A stretch of DNA of 64,000 nt from Bacteroidales bacterium. Its GTDB lineage: Bacteria > Bacteroidota > Bacteroidia > Bacteroidales > F082. This document shows positions 3 to 29,581 of the stretch, in pieces. Under the pieces are notes generated by a model. It was not told the origin of the DNA, did not search any database, and saw only the letters and a list, made by a program, of their open reading frames with translations. The stretch is taken from contig JAGBQJ010000030.1 in assembly GCA_017632935.1 (NCBI GenBank), forward strand, positions 19,516 to 83,515, given 5' to 3'. Both the position numbers and the translations under genes were made by a program. Positions within the stretch are counted from its first letter, which is position 1. Each line of letters opens with the position of its first letter.

Positions 3-3000
3 TTGACGGTTACTGGGGAGATGGAGTATGGGGATAATCAAGGCCTTTCTGTCTCGGTCAGCTCGTATTCCTATGAATATACACCAACCTATACCACATA
101 CGTTTTCGAAGGCGGTACGCACAACTACTATAACAACGGCGACCAAGGCACCAACACGCCAGGCCAGCAATCCAGCAGCGGTAACACCGTTCAGTCGTAT
201 GAGTGGACCATCTCGGGCGATGGAGAGTATTACCTTTCCTTTGATGAAACAGAGCATTACACAACCTCCGAGGCTATAAGTCCGAGGCTTTATTACAACC
301 GTCCGAACAACAGCGGACACTCCACGGCTACATTGACGCTTGTTTTGACATACGAAAATAGTAATGGTGAGACGTCCACCCAGGTGCGTACTGCCTCCAT
401 CTTGGTGAAGGCGGTGTGCGGTAACCCGGAGCAGTCTGCCGATCCTGTGGTCACCTACGAGGGCGTCACCGTGTCATGGTATCCTACCGCTTCCCATTAT
501 AAGGTGTATTTGACTACCGACTATACATGGACGGAATTTACGGAATATGATGAAGTGGGCGATGTCACCTCATATACTTTCACCGGGTTGGAGAACAATA
601 CTCATTATTATTACAAGATTGTGGCCAATTGTAATGGTTCATACGATTTTGAGAATGCCTATTCGCTTGATTTTACCACCAAAGGTGAAGCAGGTCTGCT
701 GGTCTACGGCGCCGTCTTTGGCGGCGGCCGCATGGCTAATGTGAGTGGCAAGACCGAGGTGGCCATCATCAACTGCGACAGCATCCACGCCGTGTATGGC
801 GGCAACGACATTGCCGGTGTCGTGCAAGGCGCCGATGGCGCCACCATTACGATAGGTGTTGCAGCTAATGACCCTAACCACTTTGACGACTATGGTACCA
901 CCGACGCAGACATAAGGATTTGTGATGTCTATGGCGGTGGCAACGGCTATTATGCCTACAACGGCACCTCGTTTGAGGCAGCTTCCTATAATACGGTATA
1001 CCACGTCGAACCCAATGCCAGTATCTTGGAAATGACGCAATTGCATCAACTAGGCGATGCGGTTTGGACCAATACAACTAGTTCGACAGCGGATCTCGTT
1101 TGCCCCACCATCACAAAGGCAAAAATCACGGTGACCAACGACTATGTCAAGATCGATTCCCTTTTCGGTGGTGCCAAAAACGCCATTCTGAATGACGGGA
1201 CCAAGGACGTGGACATCACCATTGATGGTGGTACCATCTTCACCGTCTTTGGCGGCAACAACTTCGGCGGCTCATTGGGTTACAAATCCAACGAGTATAT
1301 CCGTGTCACTCACACTACCACCGCAACAACAGGCGATGACTACCATGACGGCACATTGGGCCGCGACTTCGGCATCGGCTATCTCTTCGGCGGCGGCAAC
1401 AAGGTGTACGGGCAACATGCCCACATCACGATAGCGGGCGGTCAGATGGACACCGTCTTCGGCGGCGGCAACCACGAAGACCTGCGTTCCACAGAGGTGA
1501 CGGTCAACTGTCTTCTTGGCACATACAGCAGCGAAACCGGCGCGTTTGGCAGCGTTTACTCCGATGCCATCAGCAGCTATTCGAGTGGAAATTTGGCTGC
1601 CAGCAACATCGATGGCGATTATAAATGGGACCGTTCTGGCATCTACAATATACGCACCCTCTTTGGCGGCAACAACAAGGCGGCCATGGAAGGCGTGCCG
1701 ACCCTTACCTTGACTTCGGGAGGCATAGGTACCGTTTACGGTGGCGGTAACGAGGGCGACATGTTGGCTCAGGAAGAGACCACGCTTGCCATTCCGAACA
1801 GTTACGGCAATGCTCCCGACAACGCTACTATCAAATACGGTACCCATGTGCAGTTGAACAGCTCCGATATTCTGATTGACTACCTCTATGGCGGTTGCCA
1901 GAAGAGCAATGTGGACTACAGTACATGGTTGGAACTCCTTAATGGCCATGCCGGCATCGTCTATGGTGGCTGCAACATCAGTGGCGATGTGGGTAGCACG
2001 CGCGTTAACCCTGATGTCGCACCCAATCCTCCTTCGGTACTGTATCAGGAAGTGCAAGGCGGCACTTATGTCTGGGCTTCGGGAGGCACCGTCTATAAAA
2101 ACCTCTTCGCAGGCAGCAACGGTTTCTACCACTGCAACGATGGTATCCATTACATCGAGGGTATTGACTATTGTTCTCCTGAGAACTATGTTGGATTGGC
2201 CATCCCCACCCACAACGAGACTCATGTCATTGTTACTGGAAACGCTTTAATCAAGGGTAACGTCTATGCCGGCGGCAACATGTCGCCCGTAGGTTTTACG
2301 GATGCTACGGTGGGCGATAGGACATTCCCTCAATTCGTAGGCTTGGCCTCATTGCGCATGAATGGAGGTGTGGTGCATGGCAATGTGTTTGGTGGTGGCA
2401 ACATGGCCTCTATCTTGGGTAGCAACGAAGTGATGGTGTCGGGTGGTTCCATCGGCATGTCGGGCACATTTGACGGAGCCCTCTATGGTGGCAACGACCG
2501 TTCGGGACAGGTAGGCCAGATTTCCAACCGTGTCTTCCCATCAGGTTCTGACGTCGCCTCCGATGGCCATACTTCGCTGACAGATGTAAGCACCTATGTC
2601 AGTCTCACGGGCACACCTGATATCAACACTGTATATGGTGGCGGTAATGGCTTCTATGACTATGCGAATGGTGACGAGGTCATCCCTGCAGGTCACTACT
2701 GCTCTTATGATTCAAACAATGAGTTCAATGACAAACCCATTCAAACCAACACTTTCGTTGACATCAATATCAATGGTTTCCCCGCAGAAGGTGGCGGACA
2801 TATTAATACGGTGTATGGCGGCGGCGATGGCGTGACTGTGTACGGCAGCATCCAAGTCTTACTCAACGTAAAGGGTGAAAGTGGTGCATTGCCGTTAGCT
2901 TACGATCATGTGGGCACCATCTTTGGCGGCAACAACAGGGATAATGTGGTGGAACATGACAATGCACCCTTGGTGCCTGATATTATCCTGCTGCAAGGGC

Positions 3001-6000
3001 AGGTAGGCACCGTGTATGGCGGTTGCAACATGGGCGCCATGACCACAGGCAAGAACTTTACCATTGGTGGCAACACCTATGAAAATGTGGGTAGTATGGT
3101 GCGCTTGCGCAGTACCTACACCACTGAGGATGGTCACACGGCAACGCCCACTGCCGTGGTGAGCAATGCTGTTTACGGCGGATGTCGCATGAACGACGTG
3201 ACCTACAACAGCCTCGTCATCGTGGAAGGCGGCACACATCCTGCCAACATGTTCGGCGGCAGCGACATCAGCGGCACCATCAATGGTACCTCGCAGGTGG
3301 TCGTCACGGGCGGCACTACGGGCAACATCTATGGTGGCGGCAATGGTGACTACATCTATACCAACAATAATGTTTATACTACAAATAATGATCTGATTGC
3401 TTCAGGCACGGCTGCCAATCCTATCACGGCTCCCATCTGCGCCAATTCTCAGGTCGACATCCTAGGTGGACAGATTGGAACCACTGGAGATGGCAACGGA
3501 AGAGATGTCTTCGGCGGCGGCTACGGTCATGAAACCAGTATCACAGGTAATGTTGTGGTCAATGTGACCGAGACGGGCTCCAATGCAACTCATGTCTTTG
3601 GCAACGTCTACGGTGGCTCTGCCCTCGGCAGCGTCAACACCTATAATAATAATAACACCACCACGGTTAACATCCTCGGTGGCACCTTGCATGGCGACAT
3701 CTTCGGTGGCGGACTGGGACAGAAGACTGGATACAACGGAGATGCTAACATTTTGGCCACCGTCAACGGTAAAGTGTATGTCAACATCGGCGCTACTGAC
3801 GGTGCAGCCAACCCCACTTATACCGGCGATGCCATCCTTCAGGGCAACGTTTATGGCTGCAACAACTACAATGGCTCGCCGAAGGATGAGGTGTATGTGA
3901 ATGTCTATGCCACGCACCACGGCAACACCGTTGAAACCAATCACTATCCGACTACTGCTCCTACTGAAGGATGGAATGTCACGACACTTGCCGCGAATGC
4001 AGAAATCCAGAAATATGCCATTAATGCCGTCTTTGGCGGCGGCAACTTGGCGGCCTATCAACCTGAGGCCGATAAGAAATCCACTGTGCATGTGTACGGT
4101 TGCTTGAATACCGTTAAGAATGTTTTTGGCGGTGGCAATGCCGCTGACGTGGGTACGGGTAATGCCTCAACCCTTGAAGTGACACGGCGTACCGACACTT
4201 ATGTGATTATTGAAGGCGGACGCTTCAATCGTGTGATTGGCGGCGGCAACGGTGAGGACTTGAACAAGCCTGCAGCCAACATCTTCGGTACTGCCAACAC
4301 CACGGTCTATGCCGGTCTGATTGATGAAGTATACGGAGGCGCCAATATACAAGGCTCCGTCGATGCCATCAACTTGGTGATGTCCAATGCGGGCAACTCT
4401 TCATTGAGTAATTGTACCGATGAAGTGTATGGCAAGGTATTCGGCTGCGCCAATGCCGCTGACCACAACCGTAGCGTCACCACCACCGTTTTGTGCGGAG
4501 TGGGAGAGATTGGCGAACTCTACGGAGGCTCCAACTTGGCTAATATAGGCACTGTAGACCAATATAATGCGGATGTCACGCTGAATCTCTACGGTGGCGA
4601 GCATACACAAGTGTTCGCTGGCTCGAAGGGCGACTTGGAAACCTTGCCCGGTAATGGACATACCAACAAGGCATCCAATATCTATGGCAACGTTACCCTC
4701 AACCTATACGGCGGTAAGGTCATCGATGCCTACGGCGGCTGCAACTACAACGGTAACATCGCTGGTAAGATTACCGTCAACGTGATTGACGTTGTGAATC
4801 AAAACTGTACATACGGAAAACTTGATGTCACCAATGTTTATGGTGCCAGCAACTTGGCGGAATACAATCCCACATTTACACCCACATCGGGTACTGAACG
4901 TATCTCTCCCGTGGTCAACGTGATACATATTGATCAAACCGATGGTATCAAGGGCAATGTCTATGGCGGTGGCAACGCGGCTAAGGTAACCAATGCCAGC
5001 CCGCAGGTCAATATCGGTGACTACACCGGCATGATTATTCCTACTCCTATTGGCTACACTGAATATCCGATAGCGGCGGCCAATCGTCGTGGCTATGTCA
5101 AAGGCAATGTCTTCGGTGGTGGCAACAGGGAAGGCGTGACAGGCAATCCAGTCATCAACATGAGAGCCAAAGGCACGGTGGTCTCTGGCATCTACGGCGG
5201 CTGCAACGATGTAGGTACTGTCACGGGCAACATCAATGTCAACATCTATGGTGGCACTTTGGGCACCAGCACCTCGTCAAGGATGACGGAAGGTATCTTC
5301 GGCGGCGGTAAGGGCCATGCCACAGCCACTGATGGTTACATCACGGTGACAGTAGATAAGGAGACCAGTGGAGCTACGGCGCCCACCATCTACGCCGACA
5401 TCTACGGCGGCTCTGCTTTAGGTGAGGTGGGTGCTGCCAACACGACCGCAAAGATCGACTTCAAGGACGGCACACTCTATGGCACGCTCTATGGCGGCGG
5501 CATGGGTGAGGGCACAACGGCTGCTACAGCTGCCACGGTCACAGGCAATACCGAAGTGGCCATCTCCGGCGGTACTGTGAAGACAGACGTGTCCACGGTG
5601 AAGACGGGCGTATACGGCGGCTGTAATGTCAACGGCATCGTGTTGGGCAAGACTAAGGTCAACCTCACGGGCGGCACTGTCGGTGCGGCAGCTGAGGGCA
5701 CAGAGGGCGAGCCAGGCTATGTGGCCGAGGTGCGCGCCAATGTCTACGGCGGTGGTTTAGGAGAGATCACCAAGGTGAAAGGCGATGTCGAAGTTACCGT
5801 CGACGGCGCTTCGGTGAATGTCTACGGCGACGTCTACGGCGGCTCGGCCAAGGGTAAGGTCAACTGCAACGAGAACGGAGACGGAGCCAATGAAGGCTCC
5901 AAGACCGAGGTCACCCTGACCAACGGCACCATCCACGGCGACCTCTACGGTGGCGGCCATGGCCCTGACGGTGAGAATGCCCATGTGTATGGCCCTGTCA

Positions 6001-8465: not shown

Positions 8466-8535
8466 TAAAGAGCGTAACAAACATAGCATATACAGAAACC
8501 TCATCACATAATAAGCATAAAACGTATCGTTAAAG

Positions 8536-20500: not shown

Positions 20501-23500
20501 AGAACACCGAAGTTTTCATTTCGCAAGACGCTGCTGATGTGCCCACCCGCATCTACGGACGAGTGTATGGCGGCGGCGAGGTGGCCAATGTGGGCAATTA
20601 CGGATGGAAACCGGTCGCAACTGCGCCTAATATCAGCGAAATACAACTCTTATCCGACGGCCAGGCCGGCCAGGCCAAAGTTGATGTCAGCGGAGGCGTC
20701 ATCGGCTTGGACAACATGCAGATGAAGACCGCTTCGGGCATTCCCGACGACTTCGGCCATGTGTTTGGCGGCGGCGAAGGCTGGACGCAAAAACTTTCTG
20801 ATTCTCCCGTCATCGATGTGGAGGGCAACCACCTTGTGGAACTCATGGCCACCGTGGGCAATACCGACGTGACCATTGATGGCAGTGCCTTTGTGCTCGG
20901 CTCTGTATATGGCGGCAGTAGTGAAGGCCATGTACTGACCAATACCTTGGTGAAAATCAAGGGCGGACAAATTGGTGCGGGCAACGGTGTCGTTGACAGT
21001 GAAGGTCACAACAGGCCTTACACCGACGACGAATGGGACTATGCCCAATACCAGTCCTTGCCCGAATGTGCCCAATGGGACTATGAAGAGGGCGGCGCCC
21101 CCTATGACCCCAACATCATTGAAGGCGGCAAGCCCAAACCCGGTAAAAACGGAGCCACTTTCTACGGCAACGTGTTTGGCGGCGGTTCGGGCTATTATCC
21201 TTATGGCGTGGATACTGACGGCAACAGCCAATGGCTGCGCTCGGCAGGGCAGGTGAGGGGCAACACCCGCGTGGAAGTCACCGGCGGCCACATCCTTACC
21301 AGCCTTTATGGTGGCTGTGAAACCACCGACGTGGGCACATATAGATATAGTAATGTAATCCATGGAGAAGATCATGTTTCAGGTGGTCAGTCCACCGTCA
21401 TCATGAGCGGCGGCACCCTCGGTGTGCCGCGCACTTTGGCAGAAATCCAGGCTCACCCCGTCACCTGTTATGTGTTCGGCTCTGGAAAGGGCGACCCGCG
21501 CTTCTACTTCAACACTTGGACCAACGTTTGGAACTCCAAGGTGGAAATCAAGGGCACGGCCTGGGTGTATGGCTCGGTGTTTGGCGGCGGCGAGGAAGCC
21601 CACGTGCTCAACGACGTTGACCTCGACGTGAGCGGCAACGCCAAGATAGGCACCTTGGGGTATTCCTATGTGGACGGCAATATCTTCGGTGGAGGCCGCG
21701 GCTTTACGGGCAAGGCCCTCACGGCAGGCACTGTGGGCGGCAACATCGACATCACCATTACGGGCGGCACCATGCTAGGCTCCGTGTATGGCGGTGGCCG
21801 ATTAGCTTCGGTGGGCACCTATCTTGTGGATAAGGAATATAACAACGGCAGCGGCATGGTTCCGAATCCTTACTACGGCCATTTCCAACCCGGCGACGAC
21901 CATGGCAAGATTACCATCAACATTACTGGCGGTACCATCGGCAACGACTATGAAACCGCCACGCTCACCCATACTAATTCCGATACCTACGGCGGCAACG
22001 TCTTTGGCGGCTGCATGGGTAAGTACATCGCATGGAGCGGTAGCGGTGACAAGCCCATTTGGCCTTCCTTGGCCCGTGCCAAACAAACCGTGGTGACCAT
22101 CTCCGGAACGGCAAAAATTAAGAACTCGGTATATGGCGGTGGCGAAATCGGCACCGTGCGTGACAACACCACGGTCAACATCAATGGCGGCACCATTGGC
22201 GCCGACTATGGCACCTCGCCCAACAAGATGTACTGCGGCAGTGTGTTTGGCGGCGGCAAGGGCATTATGGAGATGAGTACTGACAACGACTCCACCATGG
22301 TGGCAGCCTATCTCGCTGGCCGCGTGTATGGCAACACCTATGTCAACATCAACGGTGGACAAGTGTATGAGAACGTGTTTGGTGGCGGCAAGGTGGCCAG
22401 CGTGGGCTGGGTGAAAACTGACGGCACCTTCGTGAATGGCGAAGCCACGGTCAAGATGACAGGCGGCATCATCGGGCCTTTGGACTACTCTGGTGTCAAC
22501 GCTTACATCTTCGGCGGTCCAAAGGGTGGACAGAATGACGACATGAAGCCTTATTGCAATGTGAATAGCACTTCTGTCGAGGTGGATTATACTGACAGCA
22601 ATGCCAACCGTGTTTGGGGCTCGCTGTTCGGCGGTGGTAGCGATGGTCATGTGTTAGGCAATGCCTCGGTAACGCTCAAGAACGGCACCGTTGGCACGGA
22701 AGGTGCCACAGGTTACGATGGTAATATTTTCGGCGGTGGCCGCAACTACCACGAATTGAGCCTCACCGCAGGCCGCGTGGGCGGCAACATCACCGTCAAT
22801 ATGCAAGGCGGCCAGCTTATGGGCTGCATCTTCGGCGGTGGTCGTCAAGGCTTGACGGGCATCGATATGAACGGCACGGCAGTGGATGACAACAACCACG
22901 GCAATGTCACCGTCACCATGAGCAGCGGCACCATCGGCAAGTCGACAGAAGCCCATAGTTATATGGGACAGGTGTTTGGTGGCGGCAAGGGTGACAACAC
23001 CAAAGATGACGATGATGTGGACTTCTACAAGCGTATGGGTGAGACGAGGAGCACCAACGTCACCATCAGCGGTGGCAAGGTCTACGGCAATGTGTATGGC
23101 GGCAGCGAGAACGGTCGAGTGCTTCAAAACGCCGAAGTCACTATTAACGGAAGCGCGCTCATCGGCGCAGAATCGAGCGAAAGTGCGTTTCAAGGCAATG
23201 TGTATGGCGGCGGACTCGGTATGGAGCCCTACGCAGGCACCGACCCGGCGGAAGACAATCCTAATGCTGGCCATGTGTTTGGCCTGTCAAGGGTCAACAT
23301 CAAGGGCGGCACCGTTACCAAGAGCGTGTTTGGCGGTGGCAATAAGGGCCTTGTCAATGTGGCAAGAATCGTCAACGTCGAGGCAGGTACAGTGTATGAA
23401 GACGTGTTCGGCGGCAACCGCACCATTCCGGATGCGGAGGGCGTTGTAAACAACAGCCTGAAGACGGTGAATATACGTGGTGGCCAAATCAATGGCAATG

Positions 23501-26500
23501 TGTACGGAAGTAGCTACGACGCTACGGAAGGCAATGCCCCCGACCCCGATGTCACGCCTTGGCCTTCGGGCGAGACCTATTGGTCTTCGTTCGTCAACAT
23601 CACGGGCGGCACCATCGGTGAAGACGTGTATGGCGCTGGCTATGGCGGCACCGTCTATGGCTCTAACTGCGTCCTTATCGGTCTCGAAGCCATCAAGAAA
23701 GCACCTACCTACGTTAATTTGAATGGTTCCCATAACGATGAAAATCAAGCCAACAAGTACGCCAAAGACGGCATTTCTGGAAATGGCTATCCAACGCCTG
23801 CCAAGATCAAGATCATGGGTAACGTCTACGACGGCTCCGACCACTTCGGCTCTGGTGAAGAACCCATGTGGAACAACTTCGACATCAGAGGCTACAGCCA
23901 GACCTTCCTTGACGGCACGGGCTATAACACCGCCGATGATAATGAAGGCTCTACAGACAAGCCTTACATGAACATCGAAGGCGGTCTCTACGGCTGCGGT
24001 ACGTTGTGTGAATCGGGTAAGAAAGGCCGTCAAATCCTCGTCAGGAATTACGGCGAGCGCATCACCAAGGGCGGCGAAGGTGCCGACAAAGACAACATGG
24101 AGGATGCCACCCGCACCCTGACCACCATCCAGCGTGGCGGTTATGTCTTGCTCGACAACTCGAATATCCACTTGTCTGGTGCCATCGACATCAGTAAGAA
24201 GTTCCCCGACAGAAAGTTTGGCGTCCTTCAGGTGGACAACGGCTTCTATGCAACCAACGCCAGCGGCCTGGTGCTTGGTGAAGTCGGTGCTCCGGCTTGG
24301 ATGGACTCCATCACGGAAGTCAGGAGCTTGTATCTGAGAGGCACCAACACCACTTCCTATGACCATATCGACGCCATGCAGAATAGTGACTACTGGGAGA
24401 TGGTTGGCATCAATTACAGCAACAATCGTCTGTATCGTACGGTAACCAGCACCGGACAGGATGATTTCTTGGCAGTCGATAAAGAAAATGTCATCATCTT
24501 CAACGGCAACTCGAAGCTTTGGGTGCGCAATTACAATACAACAGCAGATAAGATTTTATACGGACAGTTGTACGGTTTCTTCCGCGTGAAAGCTGATTAC
24601 TACCAGCCCGAAGGCACGGAGACCTTTGCATACGCCCGCCCGAAACTGAGCCCGCATGTGAATCGCATCGATATCTCAGATATCGTTCCTGGTTTCAATC
24701 CTGACCAAGACAGGCTCAACCCGGACGATGGCGGCTTCCTGAGTTACAATACCAGCCACAACACCTTCGTGAAAGGAGGCATTACTGTCTTGGGATGGGA
24801 ATATCTCAATGCATGGGATGGCGATGATGGCGGTAATACTTTTACCAACACGAAGCAATATCCTTATTTCAATATCAGTCAAGTTTCGAAGTCTGATGTC
24901 AATTCGCTGAATACAGAGGATTATCGTGTATGGATGCTGCCCTACACGCTGGGTAATAAGTGGTATGTTGACGGCCGCGGCATCGGCAACGGTGGCTGGG
25001 GCCAAGACAAGGACCACCAAAACAATTGGGGCGATTATCCTGACATGCCTAAGCTGAGCATTAGCGGAGCCAATGGCATCTGCAATGACGAAACTATTAA
25101 CCTGTCGCGTCCCAAGTTTAATCCTGCGGAAGATGTCATCTTTGTGGTGGGTCCTGTCAGCGCACTCGCGGAAAACGAAAACCTGAACAAATGGCCTACT
25201 GAGCATCCTTTGAAGTTGTACCGTTATCCTGGCGGCCATCCGATGAGTAATGGTCAAAAAGATGCCACCCACATAGGCAGTTCTCCATATCCTTCGACAC
25301 CTCCTGCCGATACCGACTATGCTGGCTTGGTTGGAAATGAAGAGACCGCCTTATCTACCGCAGGCCCGGGTCCCAACTATGGCGCAATAATCAATGCCAA
25401 CAGGACGGATAAACCTATGGTGATGGACAATGTCGTCGTGAATGGATTGTATACCTACGATGCAGTGGACATGCAGGAGTTGGACATTCCTGCAGCCGCA
25501 ACGCATCCCATCAACTTCGCTGATGAAAAGGTGAAGGTCCACATGCCGATGGTGGTCACCACGCCAGGTGCCAAACTTACCCTGAAGGGTGGCACGGTTT
25601 TGGAAGGAGGCTACAACAACACCGATGCTTCTGGAACCTTTACCATTGGTGACAACAGTGTGAAGAACTTCTATCTGAATCCTGACTTCAATGATCTTGC
25701 CTTCAATGCGACGGGTAAGTACAATGGCGGCGCCCTGTATGTGGCTACTGACCAACCGGCTGTTGGAGAGGATCCCGCTGTTCCCACTACGGTGAACGTG
25801 GAAGGCAAGGTGACCATTACGGGTAATTTGCAGAAGAACGGCAGTTCGACGATCAAGAGCAACGTGTATCTGCCCACCTTCGACAAGAGCCTTACCATAA
25901 CGGCTCCATTGGCTGTCGGTACAGAAATCGGCGTGACCAGCCCCATCAGGAACACGTCGGACGATTATAGGGATAACACCTTGTCGCCGGTGGCTATGGT
26001 CGAAAAGAGCGAAGCCACGCCTGCAGCTAATGGTGATATCGCATCGACGGTATGGTCGCAAGGCAACTTCCTCGACGACCAAGACTGGTTCTTCGGCAAC
26101 GGTGGCCACACCACCTATTATGATAACTTAGGTTACGAAGGTGCTGGTAACGAGTATCGTTCGCTGTACTTCGGCTGGACCTGGGCCAATGTGGTCAGGG
26201 AAGCACCTTCGGGATTCGACGTTAGCAACATCGACTCGAAAGAAGACTTGGCCTGGCTCATCAGCCTGAATACGGGCATGAATGGCGCGACCGCTACCAA
26301 CTTCTCCGGTCAAGACCTCTTGCAGAAGACGGACCTCGACATGAAGCAGTACGTCTGGGTGCCGATAGGTGATGACAGCCATAATGGTTTCGAGCACAAA
26401 TCCTTTGCCGGTCACTTCGATGGTCAGGGTCACCTGATTAAGAATATTAATATTGATTATATCGGTAGGGGAGACACCCGCTATGAGCATCAGGACTACG

Positions 26501-29301
26501 GATTGTTTGGTCATGTCAATGGCTCTGTTGAGCGCACCTTCGTGGTGAGCGGCACGGTCAGTCCCAAGGTTTCGATCGATCTCCTCAACACCGATATGTT
26601 CAACATCGGTGGTTTGGCCGGCGGCCTCCAGAACGCAACGCTGGCCAACAGCGAAGCTGCGCTTCATATCTATGCTCCAGACGAGGCCAATTACCATGTT
26701 GCTGCAGGCGGCTTGGTGGCCAAGGTGATGCCAGGTGGCGAGATACACTCGTCGATGGCCATGCCTGTGATGGAGACTACTGACAAAACCGTTGAAAATG
26801 CTACTGGAGCGTCAGTGGGTGGTCTGGTAGGTAATGCCGCGGGTGGCAATGTCTACAATTCGTTCGTGAATGCGCAATTCAATGTGTATGGTAATCCCAA
26901 GGCGGGTGGCTTGATGGGCAGCAATGATGGAGCGAAGGTGGAGAACTGTTATGTGGCCTTTAATAATACCCCTACAGAGGATCTGAACTTTGACGGCCTT
27001 GTAAGTGATGGGTACAGTGACTTCGACAGCTGCTATGTCCAGACTGGCTATCCATACATGGGCGTGACAGAAGACCGCGGTCACCACTTTACGGCCACCA
27101 ACAGCTCCGACTTGTATGGTTACATGTATAAGGACAACACGGTGAAGAAGAGTGCGACCGTCGCAGGTGCTACAGTCGACACGGCCATGTTCCGGATGCT
27201 GAACCACTGGGTGGACGGAAGGAACAAGACGGGGAACAAATACGCCCGTTGGTCGCGTCCGGGCTTGTCGGAAATCAACGGCGACTATCCTGTGCTGTTG
27301 CTCGACGACATTGATGGTACTACGGCTCACCAAGGTGACTTCAGCACGGTGGCTACCATCCATGGTACTAATGTTTTGCAGTATGGCGGTACGGTACGCG
27401 ATGGTAAACAGCTTGACGGTGCTATTGAACGAATGGTTGCAGGCAGTGCAAAAGATGCAGGCGATGCCCTCTTCGTTTATGGCGACATCACAGAGACACC
27501 GAGCAAGAATCCGGCCTCGAATACCAAGATTAGCATCCAGGAGGATGTGGCCATCATGAATCCGGGTACCCTGAGTGCCTATGACAACACCTATGTCGGT
27601 ATCACCTTCGACAACTCGTTTGGTAAGGCGACGGCGACGCCGGGCATGAACGATGGCCTCTTCGGGTCGGATAACCTGGATCTGCCCCGCGACTGGCACA
27701 TGTTCTCCACACCGCTGAGCAATGCGCCGCTGGGATTCGATTATCTCGGCGACAATGTGGCTGGCAGCCAACACAAAAACAACCCGTGGGAGAATCCTGA
27801 TGGTGAGTTCAGCTGGATTACCACACGGCCCAACAACGAGGTTTCTGATGCTGATGGTTTGGGTTACCGTTACTGGATGAAGTCTTATGAAACGGCAGAC
27901 GGCTATTTCCCGACCACGCGTGGTTATGACTTGACTGGCAACGTGAGCGACTGGTTCATTGAGAACAGTGACGAATGTCCTTCCTCAGGCAACACGTTCC
28001 TCAACCGCTATCCCTACGGTATGGACTTCTACACTTGGAACGAGCCGGAATACCACTGGATCAACTTCAAGCGCAACGGTCCTAACCACTGGCACAGCGA
28101 TACGCCACATGTCCATCTGGACTATAAGCCTGCTGAGGTGAAGGAAGGACAGACTCCATACACCACGAACCAGAATGAGGACAACCTTATTGTGGGACGT
28201 GGCTATATGGCCGCCATCGCTACCGAGACCTTCATGCAGAGCCACGGCTTGCTGAATGCAGGAGACCAGAGCATTATACTGACGAATAATGGCTGGAAAA
28301 TCAAAGGCTGGAACATGGTGGGCAATCCTTTCCATGGCTATCTTGACTTCAATGAACTTGGTAAAGCTGACGGACCCAATGAAGATGTACTGACGCATCA
28401 CGATAATAATGGAGAGGATGAAGGCGCGTTCTATGTGATTTATGATGCCGACAAATACCAGAACAGGAATGCCAGTACAGCCTACAGGTACTATCCTGTG
28501 AAAGGATCCCCAGAAGGAGCCGACTATGCCGACCGCTTCCTGCATCCGCACCAAGGCTTCTATGTGAAGACAGACACGCATTTGAGTGAGTTGAAGATTA
28601 ATGAGAATATGTTGGTGACGCGCGACTTTGTTGAGAAAAATGGTGGCAGCCATTTCCGCGCTACACAACCGTCCTATCCTTTGGTCAACCTTTACTTGAA
28701 CAGCGACAAGGGCTGCGCCGACGTGACGGTCATCGAGTTTGAACGTCCCGAGTGGGGTGGTGCACGCAAGGTGAAGGAGCTGCGCGTGGGTGATGGCTTG
28801 TTCTACGCCCACCACGGAGACACCTATTATGCCGCGCTCTTCGCCAAGGAAGGCATCGACCGCGTGCCGCTGTGGTTTGAGGCCAAGGAAGACGACATCT
28901 TCACCATGAAGTGGAACATGGCCAACGGCAACTTCCACAGCATGTACCTCATCGACAACATCACGGGCGTGCAGTACGACATGTTGCGGAACGACACCTA
29001 CACCTTCGAGGGCCACAAGGAGGACTATCCTTCGCGCTTCCTCATCGTCTTTGACTTGACCGATGTGGAAGAGTTTGAGGATGACAACGAGCATCCGTTT
29101 GCCTTCTTCAATGGCTCCGAGTGGGTGGTCACCGGCGAGGGTGATTTGGAATTCATCGACATGCTTGGCCGCGTGTTGGCCAAATCGCATATCAGCGGAC
29201 AAAACAGGATCACGTTGCCTATGGTGGCTGACGGTCCTTATCTGTTCCGCCTGACCAACCATAAGGAAACTAGAATTCAAAAAGTCATCGTAACAAAATA
29301 G
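8536..29301 (+). CDS. 6,921-aa VYGGG-repeat giant protein with T9SS type A sorting domain
   Basis: A Sec signal peptide ends ASA|Q near residue 36. An ATG at 8566 (MKFWKAR) is an alternative start that still keeps the signal peptide. Residues ~37-5,155 are the aromatic-GG repeat array. Residues ~5,155-5,985 are non-repetitive, with a short beta-helix-like stretch near 5,680-5,880 (GGALYV, KVTITGN). GLUG-like motifs follow (~5,985-6,150: GLFGHVNG, GGLVGNAAGG, GGLMGSNDG). Then come two 'W-x-M-x-(S/G)-x-P' segments typical of T9SS substrates (DWHMFSTPL ~6,385; GWNMVGNPF ~6,590). A C-terminal beta domain (~6,850-6,921: IDMLGRVL ... GPYLFRLTNH ... KVIVTK) matches type A sorting domains. The inferred route is Sec, then T9SS, then attachment to or release from the cell surface. 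A solenoid fibre or adhesin is the best guess; substrate and partner are unknown. The mass is roughly 0.7 MDa, which is extreme for a bacterial protein. Confidence 0.88.
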   Translation: MEYTYKRQYRMKFWKARRKTFLLMAMLLSGGVASAQVVVKGNVYGGCEYGEVVGNTTEKGNTSVNINGGTIGDPLSLKARVLDNNAQFSERVNQGNVYGGGDGYKITGHTGDNNDIPVFDPNAGRVQRNTEVIIGGNAVVRRAVYGGGNIATVGMCSVNETTGVATYTSGGQTNVTITDNALVGPKKTDLTAPSEAALTQASTDFGETISQSMYIDTAFKYLGGNEGWVFGGSRGVSGEELKHLSFVNTTIVAINGNAQLMTVFGGGENGHVQTSTNVTIGGNAVVGGIPLHGSGSITIPSGSGEYSGATFTAAVNETYEDGFGVGSMVYRGSVFGGGKGTDFVSWLSPKLYDYDAGRVYGNSNVTVEETPTIYNRVYGGGAIASVGTFTYASNSHTVTGISGNTGHTYVTVTGGTIGTDGHNNGEVYGGGRGYPGRAQKATETTTTTLHQAPDLAYVGHTHVTVEGGAVKNSVYGGGANGHVQGDATVLIKQTNSSIPTTIGIEDLGTWHSNVYGAGGGTAQYKDTKIVNGNPEEFTHHSITAGRVFGDVNLTIEGGKIWHNVYGGGSLASVGTYLAKDSNNQTIPYVGGGNITINITGGEIGKDGNDNGMVFGSGRGEVVAPGAFLDSLTYAAYTTVNIGSGTVNQETGEATNLSGSAKINGSVYGSGENGHVYLQSTINIFGGTIGIAAADYDPANPDPHFTHRGNVYGAGCGTDKYDSDNDTHGDTYSPNSGYVWGNTFINIYGGYISRNVYGGGAIGSVGVLGGTVPHTNTSTQAALSWPYDLSFGSIPNESGTMVSTGKATINIRGGHIGTKAAPMTSGNVFGSCRGDVGPLGVMEDLAFARETEVTVNFTPTVTSMDDVDENNTITPNVIIGSVYGSGEDGSVYENTKVTVTNGLIGGSVFGGGSGTTTYKGRLKSTNGTDDNPNDDYWMENVDLRSITAGKVYGNTVVEINGGYVLHNVYGGGNLASVGKGNYIGYGEMTSSTSGPVDPPGNSGKCTVTLKGGTIGTTGLPDENGNLNGYVYGSSRGTTFPVVNNPQGTPRYDYSRDFFLGYANKTEVNIGDANTGPTIMGSVFGGGDNGHVRWHTNVTVTNGEIGVAYEPEQDEHITDDKWVYRGNVHGAGRGIDKIVGSTTDYCQSAGSVTLNTTVTVNGGIIHRNVYGGGLLSTIGPPPTGYNPGTSTCYVNINGGTIGEELTSGDEPLYGGDIFGGSRGILDMQHANLNSFASASNTEVNIDNNANVLGNVYGGGELGQVKLESQVNLIAGTTKGSVFGGGKGDVTEVIAGAVKGNSTVDMTGGTVERSIYGGGKMGSVGTFTAHTTYNYTSGTHSGSSVDVPTACEDDTGLATVIVKGGFVGKDGSLMPWTNHNIEDDDRGWIFCGAQGVADSITYYKAPALGVVGSTYLEINKATGENPPAAPVITASVYGGSENGLVLGNTHVVIADGQIGTGHYVENGVHKWDPAYNETKWTNAIAAIGNPTSINTIAAQFHECDAWTYASPYQVYDIYANETSHPNNDSGHADYQMAALEATNGQSFFGNVFGGGSGYYPIATGVWRRTAGQVNGNAVVDITGGHILTNVFGGNEMTDVKGKCTINMSGGTVGIPRTVTQIQNNPTQGNIYGAGMGDFRSMFDTYTDVNETEVNVTGGTVFGSVFGGSEEGHVLGHAVVNIGQGEGKTTRIGTTGYSGYDGHVFGGGRGNAKKLNRKDPDPEKDYNIANFASGRVGGKATVTMTNGTVMGNLYGGGLVARTGVGETGSFDTYVTGTSYDSQNHGVTTVALSGGIVGNPTSNNGTDANKGYYLLLSEEQMGNVYGGGRGDKADFIEDDLGRAAKAVVNITSTSSGYPTIYGSVFGGGQMANVGHWRGYGANQGYAEGTSLTTVTITGSPIIGTAREFSNDYATSSHPQTEFETINEKTRLHHTRTGNVFGSGQGAVRLKHNEQGNLIGTGHPEGLEHGHCGQTQVDISGSPTIMSSVYGGADRGVVWGNTDVRIAGGTIGTLANADDTNNDNKYYYGSVYGGCYGMDAYYHMHLPTDTPEQVVDSINKKVGHVYGKTYVELTGGTVHGNVFGGGNLGTVDGLCEVKISKTGSGTGPEIGPLESGTSMNASVYGGGKGFYEDPNELRKKYANVGSTKVTVEGGNIKGSVFGGGSESHTLGNTEVIVHNGANIGTDGLSTWDGNIFGGGRNFLNTNNTNGRVAGNVTITMDGGSIQGSIFGGGRMALTGVDEDGNFPTTSWTVADHGNVTINVSGTTSGSDNNITYNTVIGNGSDQGIHLLTGSDESVGDIFGSGKGDTKEYDDILAGCVTNTTINITGSPRIHGAVFGGGEMASIGWLDSDNNIIDGTGEATIKIGDSEADKPVIGTYLELNHDYLDGSITINGHGYPRSPWTIIETEGGVERLVHTCTGNVFGGCQGDVDFEDWDDEVSSTWNNWPYMGRSKKSTITVNGGTIMGNVFGGPEQGTMDGNTTITINGGTIGTQVTASNNDKYYFGGVYGAGYGSDDSNEDNHAITVNGVATTAKMRAGRVYGNVHTDVFGGTINGDVYGGASFAYVGGEGTSPNGDVELNIGYKTTTTDSETDEEVDNFYGEAKILGSVYGANNRSGTPYGKVEVNVYKTKHWVDEQLGSNYAPETPEDGWTHELLMDNTNGGTTAYPKPQQYALREVFGGGNRASFTPNQTGREFSTNGRRTTVHIWSCENTIRDLYGGGNAADIGTSANNADIDLIVDGGRFYRVFSGGNGESGTPANIYGWANNTINSGVINELYGGGNQAGNILHTNLTINEEPNGCAEFIDNTFGGSNEAPIIGDVETDLLCGEGSAYEFYGGTNNADIYGNVTLNVHGGFTENLYGGSKGSERPANIKKFPTIPDPRPEPGQEGYDAMLDRVYQYMIDHHIEAGYGGNVIVNLYGGTIKNVFGGSNISGNIEGNIWVNVIDIENADCPLDITNLYGGCNNTDYEPVDHTAANPVISPVVNVVHIKETNTTPGYIRHNVFGGSLGHNSDVVANPVVNIGYDATTMAGYIPAGYTVKPAAQRNVKVAGNVYGGGEEGIVNGSTTVNVFEGEVGLMEYFDSDEDDEDPTLDVVNHVKYDGTNYGGSVFGGGMGSKEDADHGRVKGNSTVNIKGGHVQYNVYGGGELASVGEHTPVYETVNEEPVLVDFVPDEDNGLATVNVTGGQVGPAPMVGTFGGKTYNIPIALNGYDGYVFGGGKGEGDDAATAYKTFANVNSTSVTVQMPMDDGNHANRIWGSIFGGAEDGHVLGDAYTYFRSGLMGTDGTTSYDGNIFGGGRNYSRKNTTAGRVGGNTHVEMTNGQIYGNIYGGGRLALTGTALNGIKPLGEGRYQALRDDPDANTKKYGHTFVYVKGGTVGNDTKVDVAVGNNQTVKMPLIETFSTYSMGNVYGGGKGSEEGLVDYPKTSALLVSLTKNTTVEISQEDDDVPTRIWGIVFGGGETANVGQFSWHQVGDNHGTVSDIRISEGLAKVRIHGGIIGADRAKMRYEKDPDYPYYPRFNDDLGYVYGGCEGISDDPDKVDDDNNPVYPDVQAGPTSASTTSLINLLATVNNTDVRITGGWVKASVFGGGESGHVRGNTKVTLKGGQIGAGYDENEDEDEQPYTDGIGDTPNQFVNPATTEIITSNSLKGTYHWDYGETLHPGEENEVTIYSPYDPVDVMNGTKPSDGKSWFGNVFGGGSGWFPYIKNEGTAQDPDYKSYWNPESGKVWGNTEVIIADSIRNGNIVSKPHILNNVYGGNEMTDVGGNAIVTMNGGTIGVPRISDDINTLPTFGYLFGGGCGDPRAESLALNNVGGKTVVTVTGGIIYGSVYGGAEDGHVIGNTEVYVGQGEGKTTIIGCAGTSYDDGNIFGSGRNYLLKNYTGGRVGGNTLVEMTGGLALGSVYGGGRNAMVGLDEDLIEIDSDTHEVQALQNGPAHGKTTVRVKGGTVGNLAKMRETGHTIGYVYGGGKGSKVGPAGHPAASPLLISLVKNTEVFISQDAADVPTRIYGRVYGGGEVANVGNYGWKPVATAPNISEIQLLSDGQAGQAKVDVSGGVIGLDNMQMKTASGIPDDFGHVFGGGEGWTQKLSDSPVIDVEGNHLVELMATVGNTDVTIDGSAFVLGSVYGGSSEGHVLTNTLVKIKGGQIGAGNGVVDSEGHNRPYTDDEWDYAQYQSLPECAQWDYEEGGAPYDPNIIEGGKPKPGKNGATFYGNVFGGGSGYYPYGVDTDGNSQWLRSAGQVRGNTRVEVTGGHILTSLYGGCETTDVGTYRYSNVIHGEDHVSGGQSTVIMSGGTLGVPRTLAEIQAHPVTCYVFGSGKGDPRFYFNTWTNVWNSKVEIKGTAWVYGSVFGGGEEAHVLNDVDLDVSGNAKIGTLGYSYVDGNIFGGGRGFTGKALTAGTVGGNIDITITGGTMLGSVYGGGRLASVGTYLVDKEYNNGSGMVPNPYYGHFQPGDDHGKITINITGGTIGNDYETATLTHTNSDTYGGNVFGGCMGKYIAWSGSGDKPIWPSLARAKQTVVTISGTAKIKNSVYGGGEIGTVRDNTTVNINGGTIGADYGTSPNKMYCGSVFGGGKGIMEMSTDNDSTMVAAYLAGRVYGNTYVNINGGQVYENVFGGGKVASVGWVKTDGTFVNGEATVKMTGGIIGPLDYSGVNAYIFGGPKGGQNDDMKPYCNVNSTSVEVDYTDSNANRVWGSLFGGGSDGHVLGNASVTLKNGTVGTEGATGYDGNIFGGGRNYHELSLTAGRVGGNITVNMQGGQLMGCIFGGGRQGLTGIDMNGTAVDDNNHGNVTVTMSSGTIGKSTEAHSYMGQVFGGGKGDNTKDDDDVDFYKRMGETRSTNVTISGGKVYGNVYGGSENGRVLQNAEVTINGSALIGAESSESAFQGNVYGGGLGMEPYAGTDPAEDNPNAGHVFGLSRVNIKGGTVTKSVFGGGNKGLVNVARIVNVEAGTVYEDVFGGNRTIPDAEGVVNNSLKTVNIRGGQINGNVYGSSYDATEGNAPDPDVTPWPSGETYWSSFVNITGGTIGEDVYGAGYGGTVYGSNCVLIGLEAIKKAPTYVNLNGSHNDENQANKYAKDGISGNGYPTPAKIKIMGNVYDGSDHFGSGEEPMWNNFDIRGYSQTFLDGTGYNTADDNEGSTDKPYMNIEGGLYGCGTLCESGKKGRQILVRNYGERITKGGEGADKDNMEDATRTLTTIQRGGYVLLDNSNIHLSGAIDISKKFPDRKFGVLQVDNGFYATNASGLVLGEVGAPAWMDSITEVRSLYLRGTNTTSYDHIDAMQNSDYWEMVGINYSNNRLYRTVTSTGQDDFLAVDKENVIIFNGNSKLWVRNYNTTADKILYGQLYGFFRVKADYYQPEGTETFAYARPKLSPHVNRIDISDIVPGFNPDQDRLNPDDGGFLSYNTSHNTFVKGGITVLGWEYLNAWDGDDGGNTFTNTKQYPYFNISQVSKSDVNSLNTEDYRVWMLPYTLGNKWYVDGRGIGNGGWGQDKDHQNNWGDYPDMPKLSISGANGICNDETINLSRPKFNPAEDVIFVVGPVSALAENENLNKWPTEHPLKLYRYPGGHPMSNGQKDATHIGSSPYPSTPPADTDYAGLVGNEETALSTAGPGPNYGAIINANRTDKPMVMDNVVVNGLYTYDAVDMQELDIPAAATHPINFADEKVKVHMPMVVTTPGAKLTLKGGTVLEGGYNNTDASGTFTIGDNSVKNFYLNPDFNDLAFNATGKYNGGALYVATDQPAVGEDPAVPTTVNVEGKVTITGNLQKNGSSTIKSNVYLPTFDKSLTITAPLAVGTEIGVTSPIRNTSDDYRDNTLSPVAMVEKSEATPAANGDIASTVWSQGNFLDDQDWFFGNGGHTTYYDNLGYEGAGNEYRSLYFGWTWANVVREAPSGFDVSNIDSKEDLAWLISLNTGMNGATATNFSGQDLLQKTDLDMKQYVWVPIGDDSHNGFEHKSFAGHFDGQGHLIKNINIDYIGRGDTRYEHQDYGLFGHVNGSVERTFVVSGTVSPKVSIDLLNTDMFNIGGLAGGLQNATLANSEAALHIYAPDEANYHVAAGGLVAKVMPGGEIHSSMAMPVMETTDKTVENATGASVGGLVGNAAGGNVYNSFVNAQFNVYGNPKAGGLMGSNDGAKVENCYVAFNNTPTEDLNFDGLVSDGYSDFDSCYVQTGYPYMGVTEDRGHHFTATNSSDLYGYMYKDNTVKKSATVAGATVDTAMFRMLNHWVDGRNKTGNKYARWSRPGLSEINGDYPVLLLDDIDGTTAHQGDFSTVATIHGTNVLQYGGTVRDGKQLDGAIERMVAGSAKDAGDALFVYGDITETPSKNPASNTKISIQEDVAIMNPGTLSAYDNTYVGITFDNSFGKATATPGMNDGLFGSDNLDLPRDWHMFSTPLSNAPLGFDYLGDNVAGSQHKNNPWENPDGEFSWITTRPNNEVSDADGLGYRYWMKSYETADGYFPTTRGYDLTGNVSDWFIENSDECPSSGNTFLNRYPYGMDFYTWNEPEYHWINFKRNGPNHWHSDTPHVHLDYKPAEVKEGQTPYTTNQNEDNLIVGRGYMAAIATETFMQSHGLLNAGDQSIILTNNGWKIKGWNMVGNPFHGYLDFNELGKADGPNEDVLTHHDNNGEDEGAFYVIYDADKYQNRNASTAYRYYPVKGSPEGADYADRFLHPHQGFYVKTDTHLSELKINENMLVTRDFVEKNGGSHFRATQPSYPLVNLYLNSDKGCADVTVIEFERPEWGGARKVKELRVGDGLFYAHHGDTYYAALFAKEGIDRVPLWFEAKEDDIFTMKWNMANGNFHSMYLIDNITGVQYDMLRNDTYTFEGHKEDYPSRFLIVFDLTDVEEFEDDNEHPFAFFNGSEWVVTGEGDLEFIDMLGRVLAKSHISGQNRITLPMVADGPYLFRLTNHKETRIQKVIVTK
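12828..14150 (+). repeat. long super-repeat B, copy 1
   Basis: Landmark order: VYGGSENGLVLGNT, GQIGTG, a Trp/Tyr-rich insert, FGNVFGGGSGYYP, GGHILTNVFGGNEMTDV, GGTVGIPRT, GMGDFR, GHVLG, GQGEGKTT, YDGHVFGGGRG, GRVGG, GNLYGGG and VFGGGQMANVG. Two further copies start at 19279 and 20896. Ends are approximate. Confidence 0.7.
16190..17760 (+). repeat. large module A, copy in second giant gene
   Basis: Matches the modules at 3510 and 6425 of the upstream gene in order and spacing: SVYGANNRSGTPYGKV, YKTKH, YALREVFGGGNRASF, CENTIRDLYGGGNAADI, GGRFYRVFSGGNGE, PANIYG, ISPVVNVVHI, GNVYGGGEEG. This indicates module exchange or duplication between the two genes. Confidence 0.7.
19279..20610 (+). repeat. 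long super-repeat B, copy 2
   Basis: Same order as the copy at 12828: VFGGGESGHVRGNT, GQIGAG, FGNVFGGGSGWFP, NNVYGGNEMTDV, GGTIGVPR, GCGDPR, GHVIGNT, GQGEGKTT, DGNIFGSGRN, GRVGGNT, SVYGGGR and VYGGGEVANVG. Confidence 0.7.
20896..22160 (+). repeat. long super-repeat B, copy 3
   Basis: Same order as the two earlier copies: VYGGSSEGHVLTNT, GQIGAG, YGNVFGGGSGYYP, GGHILTSLYGGCETTDV, GGTLGVPRT, KGDPR, AHVLND, DGNIFGGGRG, GTVGGN, SVYGGGRLASVG. It follows almost directly on the tail of copy 2. Confidence 0.7.
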
Positions 29302-29306
29302 GGAGG
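29302..29306 (+). promoter_or_regulatory. strong Shine-Dalgarno site before small exported protein
   Basis: GGAGG lies 8 bases before the ATG at 29315, immediately after the stop of the 6,921-aa gene. Most genes here have no such site, so this one stands out. It supports translation of the short downstream gene from the same message. Confidence 0.6.
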
Positions 29307-29314
29307 AATAAGTT

Positions 29315-29581
29315 ATGAAGAGTTTGAATAGAAAAATAGTCTTGTTTGTAGTTGTCCTGCTCATGTTGGCAGGGCCGCTTAAGGCGCAAGTGTACATCAT
29401 GGAAGATGAGTTCGAGGGTACACTGCGCTCGGGTTACGAGGACTTTGAATTGACAACGCCTTATGAAGGTGGTGATTCGGACCAGCAGTATGCACCTGTT
29501 GGCAACGGCCTGTTGGCTTTGACCTTGCTGGGTGGTGCCTATCTGTTGACAAAACGAAAGAAAAAAGATGAAGAATGTTGA
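29315..29581 (+). CDS. small exported protein with C-terminal hydrophobic segment and basic tail
   Basis: This 88-aa protein has a Sec signal peptide (cleavage LKA|Q near residue 25). A short acidic middle follows (EDEFEGTL, EDFEL, GGDSDQQY), then a C-terminal Pro-Val-Gly-Asn-Gly, a hydrophobic stretch of about 13 residues (LLALTLLGGAYLL) and the tail TKRKKKDEEC. The layout of motif, membrane segment and basic tail resembles proteobacterial PEP-CTERM and Gram-positive LPXTG sorting signals, but no catalogued signal was matched. It sits 13 bases after the giant T9SS protein with its own GGAGG, so co-transcription is likely. It may be an inner-membrane partner, a chaperone or anchor for the giants, or a very short substrate of an unknown sortase-like enzyme. 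The gene call is firm; the function is unknown. Confidence 0.75.
   Translation: MKSLNRKIVLFVVVLLMLAGPLKAQVYIMEDEFEGTLRSGYEDFELTTPYEGGDSDQQYAPVGNGLLALTLLGGAYLLTKRKKKDEEC

What the first reader, a model, noticed from the sequence alone, without database searches (positions are those of the whole stretch)
3..29581. Two adjacent giant VYGGG-repeat proteins and a mini protein: a possible undescribed surface system
About 29.5 kb encodes two proteins of at least 2,820 and 6,921 aa made of one repeat family, followed 13 bases later by an 88-aa exported protein with a C-terminal sorting-like segment. The repeat (aromatic-GG turn, then V-x-I-x-GG strands, about every 46 residues) is not one I can name. 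If each 20-25 residues forms one solenoid rung, array 2 alone would be on the order of 100 nm long (inference). Gene order, shared modules and the T9SS domain suggest a cell-surface fibre or adhesin with a dedicated partner.
Basis: partly seen in the sequence, partly recalled or inferred. Interest (0 to 1): 0.85.

Follow-up and report, generated by a model that had tools for sequence, protein, structure and literature searches.

The report
Giant surface fibre with sorting partner
A run of four giant repeat proteins, probably forming one long fibre on the surface of a bacterium related to rumen Bacteroidia, is followed by a tiny protein that looks like the substrate of a second, separate sorting enzyme, a pairing that recurs in many related bacteria and that I did not find described.

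Summary
No Pfam or NCBIfam model covers the repeat. AlphaFold models of two slices are confident and beta-rich (pTM 0.86, 0.83) with no significant PDB fold match. Relatives carry one to four such chains; three single-chain versions join homologues of the first giant's N-terminus and the last giant's C-terminus, so the chains probably build one fibre. Only the last has a T9SS-type end; 18 of 21 CTD-less chains end in one conserved rung. The mini belongs to a family in 105 of 393 genomes of the order; 95 of these carry an XrtX-like exosortase, against 56 of the other 288. In 27 of 28 testable loci it follows a T9SS cargo gene. Best reading: a multi-chain beta-solenoid fibre secreted by T9SS, with an exosortase-substrate partner. 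The cargo-mini pairing is the most novel result; stacking, cleavage and adhesion are inferred.

The parts
3..8465 (+). Third giant of the cluster (g3), 3' 2820 of 3050 residues; gene starts upstream of the window at C18:18828. N-terminal globular part, VYGGG array, C-terminal InlB-type B-repeat; no T9SS CTD found
714..8120 (+). VYGGG array of g3 (approximate limits from first and last aromatic-GG motif)
5085..6149 (+). 355-residue slice of g3 modelled: beta-rich, pLDDT 80.4, pTM 0.86
8238..8447 (+). PF18998 divergent InlB B-repeat at the end of g3 (44.5 bits, cut-off 23.6)
8536..29301 (+). Fourth giant (g4), 6921 aa: signal peptide, repeats starting directly after it, about 1900-aa C-terminal region, T9SS-like CTD
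8536..8640 (+). N-terminal signal peptide region of g4 (by inspection, no predictor run)
8662..23656 (+). VYGGG array of g4 (approximate limits)
12298..13665 (+). Super-repeat copy (456 aa), modelled (pLDDT 73.8, pTM 0.83)
18739..20154 (+). Second copy of the super-repeat
20551..21705 (+). Third copy of the super-repeat
26806..26874 (+). GLUG motif (PF07581, 21.3 bits, cut-off 20.5)
29131..29292 (+). T9SS type A-like C-terminal sorting domain, N-terminally short (TIGR04183 profile 18-71, 20.4 bits, below cut-off 23)
29315..29581 (+). Mini protein, 88 aa: signal peptide, short acidic middle, PVGNG motif, hydrophobic stretch, basic tail; member of the mini family
29495..29569 (+). Exosortase-like tripartite tail of the mini (P-[LVI]-G-x-G, hydrophobic, KRKKK)

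Best explanation
The cluster is probably one operon that builds a very long surface fibre. The last giant (g4) is exported by Sec and the type IX secretion system through its C-terminal domain and fixed to the cell surface; its solenoid begins directly at its mature N-terminus. The other chains (g3, g2, g1) extend that solenoid end to end through their conserved terminal rungs, and g1 puts carbohydrate-binding-type domains (ricin-B-like in this genome, Fn3-associated/CHB_HEX_C) at the tip. In three relatives tip and base are one polypeptide. The mini is exported, cut near its P-x-G-x-G motif by the single exosortase of the genus, and acts as the partner of the T9SS cargo encoded just before it, most likely in anchoring or assembling it at the outer membrane. 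Shown: gene order, homology, recurrence of chain types, fusion, co-occurrence of mini and exosortase, mini-cargo adjacency. Inferred: operon, stacking, cleavage, anchoring, adhesion.
For: Four tandem same-strand genes with 55-71 bp gaps and the mini 13 bp on. A 400-aa slice of the repeat finds only this locus in the own genome (15 matches). SprA translocon present (E 8e-165) and 114 PF18962 matches. Models with pTM 0.86 and 0.83. Fusion: N-termini of single-chain G031b, G029 and G010 match g1 (28-35%; G031b 32% over 1217 aa, E 1e-136) and their C-termini match g4 (46-51%); G029 and G031b sit in the same slot between a transporter gene and an acyl-CoA ligase gene. Terminal rung: 18 of 21 CTD-less chains end 22-40 residues after the last GNVYGGG-type motif, ten of these from three other families; the first rungs of seven chains whose array starts near the N-terminus score high with a profile of eight C-terminal rungs (Mann-Whitney p 1.7e-5). 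Tip domains above Pfam cut-offs: RicinB, Fn3_assoc and CHB_HEX_C_1 in g1, the last two in all four other g1-type tips scanned. Mini: behind 8 of the 9 giants read in full; family in 40 of 40 genomes of the genus; exosortase in 44 of 45, Cys, Arg and His invariant in six, own copy TIGR04178 48.6 bits against cut-off 23; order-wide 95 of 105 genomes with mini have it against 56 of 288 without; CTD just upstream in 23 of 26 and 27 of 28 testable loci, control 2 of 29.
Against: No CTD or other known secretion signal was found on g1-g3, so how they cross the outer membrane is open. The CTD of g4 scores below both curated cut-offs. The window's own mini does not match PID-CTERM; only relatives do. 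Foldseek gives nothing better than E 0.12, TM to the query at most 0.26 in the rows shown, so 'solenoid' rests on the repeat pattern and predicted strands. N-rung ranks of two g4-type chains, the window's own among them, are unremarkable (137 and 238 of 679). The repeat is rare: 7 of 393 genomes of the order and 2 of 5 sampled genomes of the genus at E 1e-8, two candidates scored per genome. A fourth single-chain giant (G031a) has an N-terminus unlike g1. G010 has no mini and another neighbourhood. Five of the 11 minis of the own genome do not follow a CTD. Outside the genus no mini was seen beside the VYGGG chains in the stretches read. The co-occurrence statistics are not corrected for phylogeny beyond a count by family.
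Confidence: 0.55

Rival explanations
1. Four independent surface adhesins made by tandem duplication, each working alone; the mini only partners g4.
For: Each giant has its own signal peptide-like N-terminus; g1, g3 and g4 have different N-terminal parts; repeat copies diverge (28-53% identity to the slice used).
Against: Only g4 has a T9SS-type end; g1 and g4 homologues are one protein in G029, G031b and G010; the order of chain types is kept in G000, G024 and G018.
Confidence: 0.25
2. The mini is a bitopic inner-membrane accessory of T9SS (chaperone, plug or regulator of large cargo) that is never cut by an exosortase; the co-occurrence reflects shared ancestry.
For: The window mini matches no curated sorting domain above cut-off; 10 of 105 genomes with mini lack a detected exosortase, among them both mini genomes of family f77.
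Against: Odds ratio 39 for co-occurrence, 49 of 50 families with mini; of fifteen out-of-genus minis scanned, three match PID_CTERM above its cut-off of 26 (L154, L164, L223), ten below it at E up to 0.1, two not at all; the enzyme's best subfamily match is XrtX, though far below that cut-off.
Confidence: 0.25
3. The giant series is a broken-up single gene (sequencing or assembly error or a decaying pseudogene).
For: Repeat regions assemble badly in MAGs (general knowledge); single-chain versions exist.
Against: Each piece has its own start and signal peptide-like N-terminus; three- or four-chain forms recur in G000, G024 and G018; no internal stop in 20.8 kb of g4.
Confidence: 0.04
4. The fibre is a catalytic or scaffold surface for plant-cell-wall digestion rather than an adhesin.
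For: Two named relatives are MAGs with RUG isolate names (rumen origin recalled from that naming); CHB_HEX_C, Fn3_assoc and ricin-B domains at the tip; weak Foldseek neighbours include tapirins and pectin-type beta-helices (E 0.12 or worse).
Against: No catalytic family above cut-off in the four giants. Three g1-type tips of relatives do match Peptidase_M26_N above cut-off, by name a non-catalytic N-terminal region of a peptidase; in g1 itself it is below cut-off.
Confidence: 0.15

Closest known systems
PID-CTERM / exosortase X (NCBIfam NF046080 and NF046081)
   Same: Out-of-genus relatives of the mini match PID_CTERM (three of fifteen above cut-off), and the exosortase is closest to XrtX; same tripartite tail
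   Different: The window mini has no PID_CTERM match; the seven enzymes scanned score 72.6-96.9 bits against the XrtX cut-off of 170, so they are not XrtX by that rule. That the two models are a cognate pair is recalled and guessed from adjacent accessions. A pairing with T9SS cargo was not found in the paper searches made
T9SS type A cargo (TIGR04183, PF18962), short-CTD form as in Prevotella intermedia (PMC11969387, abstract and passages seen)
   Same: C-terminal domain of the same kind, N-terminally short; short CTDs of P. intermedia are cut and glycosylated
   Different: Score below cut-off in the window; far larger than usual cargo; accompanied by a mini
SprB/SprF and other T9SS type B cargo with a PorP/SprF partner (recalled, not searched)
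   Same: Giant repetitive surface protein with a partner gene just downstream
   Different: Here the CTD is type A-like and the partner is a tiny exosortase-like substrate, not a beta-barrel
Beta-helix adhesins (two-partner and autotransporter adhesins such as Ag43, tapirins)
   Same: Long beta-solenoid stalk; most weak Foldseek neighbours are of this kind
   Different: No significant fold match; T9SS-type end instead of their export routes; several chains
Fibrillar adhesins (survey PMC8286594, passages seen)
   Same: Adhesive domain, repetitive stalk and an anchor; Por_Secre_tail is among the anchors there
   Different: Stalk repeat not in Pfam; tip and anchor lie on different polypeptides in this genome

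Membership tests
T9SS type A cargo | C-terminal domain scoring above the curated cut-off | tested here: not met
   g4: TIGR04183 20.4 of 23 bits, PF18962 15.7 of 27 bits
T9SS type A cargo | T9SS translocon in the genome | tested here: met
   SprA_N E 7.7e-165 in G000; 114 PF18962 matches
T9SS type A cargo | Signal peptide | tested here: inconclusive
   seen by inspection only; no predictor available
T9SS type A cargo | Sortase cleavage and surface attachment | not testable with these tools
   needs an experiment
Exosortase substrate (PEP-CTERM-like) | Exported protein with C-terminal motif, hydrophobic stretch and basic tail | tested here: met
   by inspection of the alignment of 33 minis, invariant P61, L69, Y76
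Exosortase substrate (PEP-CTERM-like) | Match to a curated sorting-domain model | tested here: not met
   window mini: PEP_CTERM 11.7 of 16, LPXTG 15.6 of 15.9 bits; relatives: PID_CTERM above cut-off in 3 of 15 scanned
Exosortase substrate (PEP-CTERM-like) | Exosortase in the same genome | tested here: met
   G000:C7:18264-18893, TIGR04178 48.6 bits, cut-off 23
Exosortase X (XrtX, NF046081) | Score at or above 170 bits | tested here: not met
   72.6 to 96.9 bits in seven enzymes scanned, own genome 72.6
Exosortase/archaeosortase superfamily | TIGR04178 signature, and conserved Cys, Arg, His (their role recalled) | tested here: met
   48.6-63.5 bits in seven, cut-off 23; C105, R146, H165 invariant in six
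Known beta-helix repeat families (Pfam) | Match of the arrays to a repeat model | tested here: not met
   none above cut-off in the arrays
Solved beta-helix folds | Significant structural match | tested here: not met
   best Foldseek E 0.12 and 0.28; VIA-align was not available

The most novel reading that the evidence does not exclude
Bacteroidales run a two-sortase surface pathway: a subset of T9SS cargo is encoded with its own exosortase-processed mini protein, and without the processed mini the cargo is not anchored or assembled. In the genus studied this pathway serves a fibre built from several giant beta-solenoid chains that dock end to end through a conserved C-terminal rung, which may itself be a new export or assembly signal for chains without a CTD.
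Probability: 0.35. Interest if true: 0.88.

Novelty: new variant of a known kind. Interest (0 to 1): 0.72.

Why it matters
I know of no proven substrate of a Bacteroidota exosortase (recalled). A 2024 study of Flavobacterium johnsoniae (PMC10936215, passages seen) found xrtF among its surface-colonisation genes and left the substrates to future work. The mini family gives a concrete list of candidates and, because most of those tested lie beside a T9SS cargo gene, a concrete hypothesis of what they do. Separately, a fibre made of several stacked giant chains with the tip and the anchor on different polypeptides would be an unusual way to build a very long surface structure, and the conserved terminal rung makes it testable with short recombinant pieces.

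Tried and rejected
Pfam and NCBIfam scans of the four giants, and a PDB sequence search with one 355-aa slice, found nothing useful for the repeat (the one PDB hit, filamin-B at E 0.013, was taken as chance). PF09721 as an exosortase probe matched 10 of 20 genomes and not G000; an alignment of the enzymes then matched 44 of 45, G000 included. The first general CTD profile was spoilt by a wrong extraction and gave 5 of 28; rebuilt from exact PF18962 matches of G000 plus the ends of nine giants it gave 27 of 28, at a lax threshold, the weakest hit 9.6 bits. A Bacteroidota-type promoter (TTG-N-TAnnTTTG, recalled consensus) starts 90 bp before g1 and none lies between g1 and the mini, but two matches in 43 kb is about what I estimate for chance, so the operon rests on gaps and strand. 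Papers: nine searches showed no description of the repeat or of the T9SS-mini pairing; the library holds open-licence papers only, and a paper on exosortases that I asked for is not held. Considered and dropped: single broken gene; minis as chance ORFs (family in 40 of 40 genomes).

Rows set aside or against: 4 of 30 loci start within 110 bp of a contig end and were set aside, 3 of the other 26 have no CTD (L103, L105, L108), and 7 of the 23 positives were seeds (16 of 19 without them). One search saw the best locus of 30 of the 105 genomes with mini: 2 were set aside (L216, L226), 1 of 28 has no CTD (L220), 6 were from seed genomes (21 of 22 without them). In one search, 10 of 11 upstream ORFs were scanned: 9 match TIGR04183, 8 at or above its cut-off; L152 does not, and L150 (below cut-off) has another ORF between. 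Searches scored at most 14 candidates per genome, two, so counts are lower bounds. The split of G000's CTDs at profile position 18 was chosen after seeing the list. The family count takes 120 families in all, the highest number I saw, not a number given by a call.
Full report
What is there. The window is G000:C18:19516-83515 of a 2.86-Mb, 62-contig genome, 92% complete. Fetching the contig to the left shows that the first is cut by the window edge: it starts at C18:18828 and is 3050 aa. Two more proteins of the same family precede it, 1587 aa (C18:13993-18756) and about 1579 aa (C18:9198-13937). I call the four g1 to g4. Gaps are 55, 71, 70 and 13 bp. The repeat is real: 183 aromatic-GG motifs against 4.8 per shuffled set, 102 units with a unit profile against none in 20 shuffled sets. 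The core reads V-x-I-x-GG-x-I-x-G-N-V-Y-G-G-G. In g4 a longer super-repeat of 385-472 aa occurs at least three times and also in two named relatives.

What the domains are. The arrays match no Pfam or NCBIfam model above cut-off. g1 has a ricin-B-like domain (39.8 bits, cut-off 25.6) and Fn3_assoc/CHB_HEX_C_1. In the g1-type tips of G018, G024, G031b and, outside the genus, G375, Fn3_assoc and CHB_HEX_C_1 are above cut-off and ricin-B is not; three of these four also match Peptidase_M26_N above cut-off. g3 ends in a B-repeat. g4 has a GLUG motif and a T9SS-type end below the curated cut-offs; the genome has SprA and 114 PF18962 matches.

Fold. A 355-aa slice of g3 gives pLDDT 80.4 and pTM 0.86, and a 456-aa slice of g4 gives 73.8 and 0.83, each with seven sequences; both are beta-rich, the second with short helices in poorly predicted excursions. 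Foldseek finds no PDB match at E 0.001; the best are E 0.12 and 0.28, mostly beta-helices, TM to the query at most 0.26 in the rows shown. I read this as a beta-solenoid without a close solved relative; coordinates could not be inspected here.

Conservation of the locus. Full-length relatives of the g4 end were found in seven other genomes of the genus, G031 having two; one more (G019) is cut by a contig end (60 genomes searched, 36 of the genus, the own one included). In G000, G024, G018, G029 and one G031 locus the cluster sits between a transporter gene (EamA-like by inspection) and an acyl-CoA ligase gene, in G000 with one 136-aa ORF between transporter and g1; in G012 only the ligase side is on the contig; G022, G010 and the other G031 locus have other neighbours. 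The slot holds four chains in G000, three in G024 and G018, one in G029 and G031. Single-chain forms are homologous to g1 at their N-terminus (G031b 32% over 1217 aa, E 1e-136; G029 35%, E 1e-134; G010 28%, E 1e-19) and to g4 at their C-terminus (46-51%). A fourth single-chain giant, G031a, has an unrelated N-terminus. The fusion argument says that g1 and g4 work together.

How the chains may join. g2 and g4 start their array straight after the signal peptide; most CTD-less chains end with a bare rung. In 18 of 21 complete CTD-less chains (CTD judged by eye for those outside G000), ten of them from three other families, the protein ends 22 to 40 residues after the last GNVYGGG-type motif; the other three are g3 types with extra sequence at the end. 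A profile of eight such C-terminal rungs ranks the first rungs of seven chains that start with the array at 10, 11, 17, 43, 83, 137 and 238 of 679 (Mann-Whitney p 1.7e-5 with the eight training rungs left out). That fits end-to-end docking, but the window's own g4 is at 137. How chains without a CTD cross the outer membrane is the weakest point; the constant terminal rung might itself be a signal.

The mini. It has a signal peptide-like start, an acidic middle of about 35 residues, P-V-G-N-G, a short hydrophobic run and KRKKK. A mini lies just downstream in 8 of the 9 giant loci read in full, G010 being the exception. The family is present in 40 of 40 genomes of the genus, 1 to 19 matches each at E 0.001. 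In 30 best-per-genome loci, 23 of the 26 with enough upstream sequence have a T9SS-type CTD on the same strand 12 to 263 bp before the mini. In G000 11 minis are found; 6 follow a CTD, where chance would give about 0.6% each, and 5 do not: four lie just before lipoprotein-like genes and one stands alone. The partner CTDs tend to be the N-terminally short ones: 4 of 8 such CTDs have a mini against 1 of 106 others (Fisher p 5e-5, split chosen afterwards).

The exosortase. Half of 20 genomes gave a weak PF09721 match. The six proteins read are about 200 aa with invariant C105, R146 and H165; three of them match TIGR04178 at 57-62.5 bits, cut-off 23, and their nearest subfamily is XrtX at 85-93 bits, far below its cut-off of 170. 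With that alignment one copy is found in 44 of 45 genomes of the genus, 21 of 21 high-quality ones; the own copy is C7:18264-18893.

The order. In 393 genomes the in-genus mini profile finds 13, of which 8 are outside the genus, and 7 of these 8 have the exosortase. The minis found outside match PID_CTERM: two of nine above its cut-off, one of six more. A profile of nine of them finds minis in 105 of 393 genomes and 64 of 206 genera. The exosortase is found in 151. Both are in 95, mini alone in 10, exosortase alone in 56, neither in 232 (Fisher p 4e-39; outside the genus 90, 10, 56, 232). By family 49 of 50 mini families have the enzyme against 19 of the other 70 (120 families assumed). In 27 of 28 testable loci, taken from the best 30 of the 105 genomes, a CTD lies 24 to 150 bp upstream on the same strand; without the six seed genomes 21 of 22; of 29 exosortase-centred control loci 2 have any CTD. 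The control is not matched for cargo density. So the mini looks like an exosortase-type partner of T9SS cargo well beyond the genus, and its presence behind g4 is one case of that.

Repeat family range. Relatives of g2 were found in 7 of 393 genomes of the order at E 1e-8: two of the five sampled of the genus and five of three other families. There too they often come in tandem without CTDs and end in the terminal rung; no mini was seen beside them in the stretches read (a motif filter by script, not a profile search).

Known and new. T9SS short CTDs (PMC11969387, abstract and passages), fibrillar adhesins with Por_Secre_tail (PMC8286594, passages) and an XrtF effect on colonisation with substrates left open (PMC10936215, passages) are in print. 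The repeat, the multi-chain arrangement and the T9SS-exosortase pairing were not found in nine searches of an open-licence library; that PID-CTERM and XrtX are a cognate pair is recalled. I file the case as a new variant: both sorting systems are known, their coupling and the stacked giants are the new part.

Noticed in passing
L197:4673-5020 (G000:C13:185672-186019) and L198:3315-3620 (G000:C24:5314-5619): Other minis with the same type of tail sit directly before 535-aa lipoprotein-like genes that resemble FISUMP-domain proteins (name recalled); two more (C5:43942, C50:108987) lie just before lipoprotein-like genes of another type.
   Followed up: partly
L129:8535-8864 (G000:C17): A lone mini lies between divergent genes that look like ATP synthase subunits, with no CTD beside it.
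   Followed up: no
G022:C60:9337-10983 (L050) and G375:C2:244002-245540 (L125:4002-5540): In two distant genomes a 510-550-aa ORF of one apparent family (GIQ/GVQ-x-FE near the start, DDW near the end; looks like an AAA-ATPase/PD-(D/E)XK protein, recalled) lies between two VYGGG giants.
   Followed up: no
L150:1480-1791 (G228): Here the mini lies between a T9SS-tail protein plus a 279-aa ORF and a gene that looks like a polysaccharide-export lipoprotein, reminiscent of the exosortase/exopolysaccharide link.
   Followed up: no
window 12298-13665, 18739-20154, 20551-21705: A super-repeat of 385-472 aa inside g4, 38-54% identical between copies and relatives, with long invariant stretches; possibly a functional surface.
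   Followed up: partly
G031:C23:24277-38418 (L056): G031 has a second giant locus with its own mini, at another place and with an N-terminal region unlike g1.
   Followed up: partly
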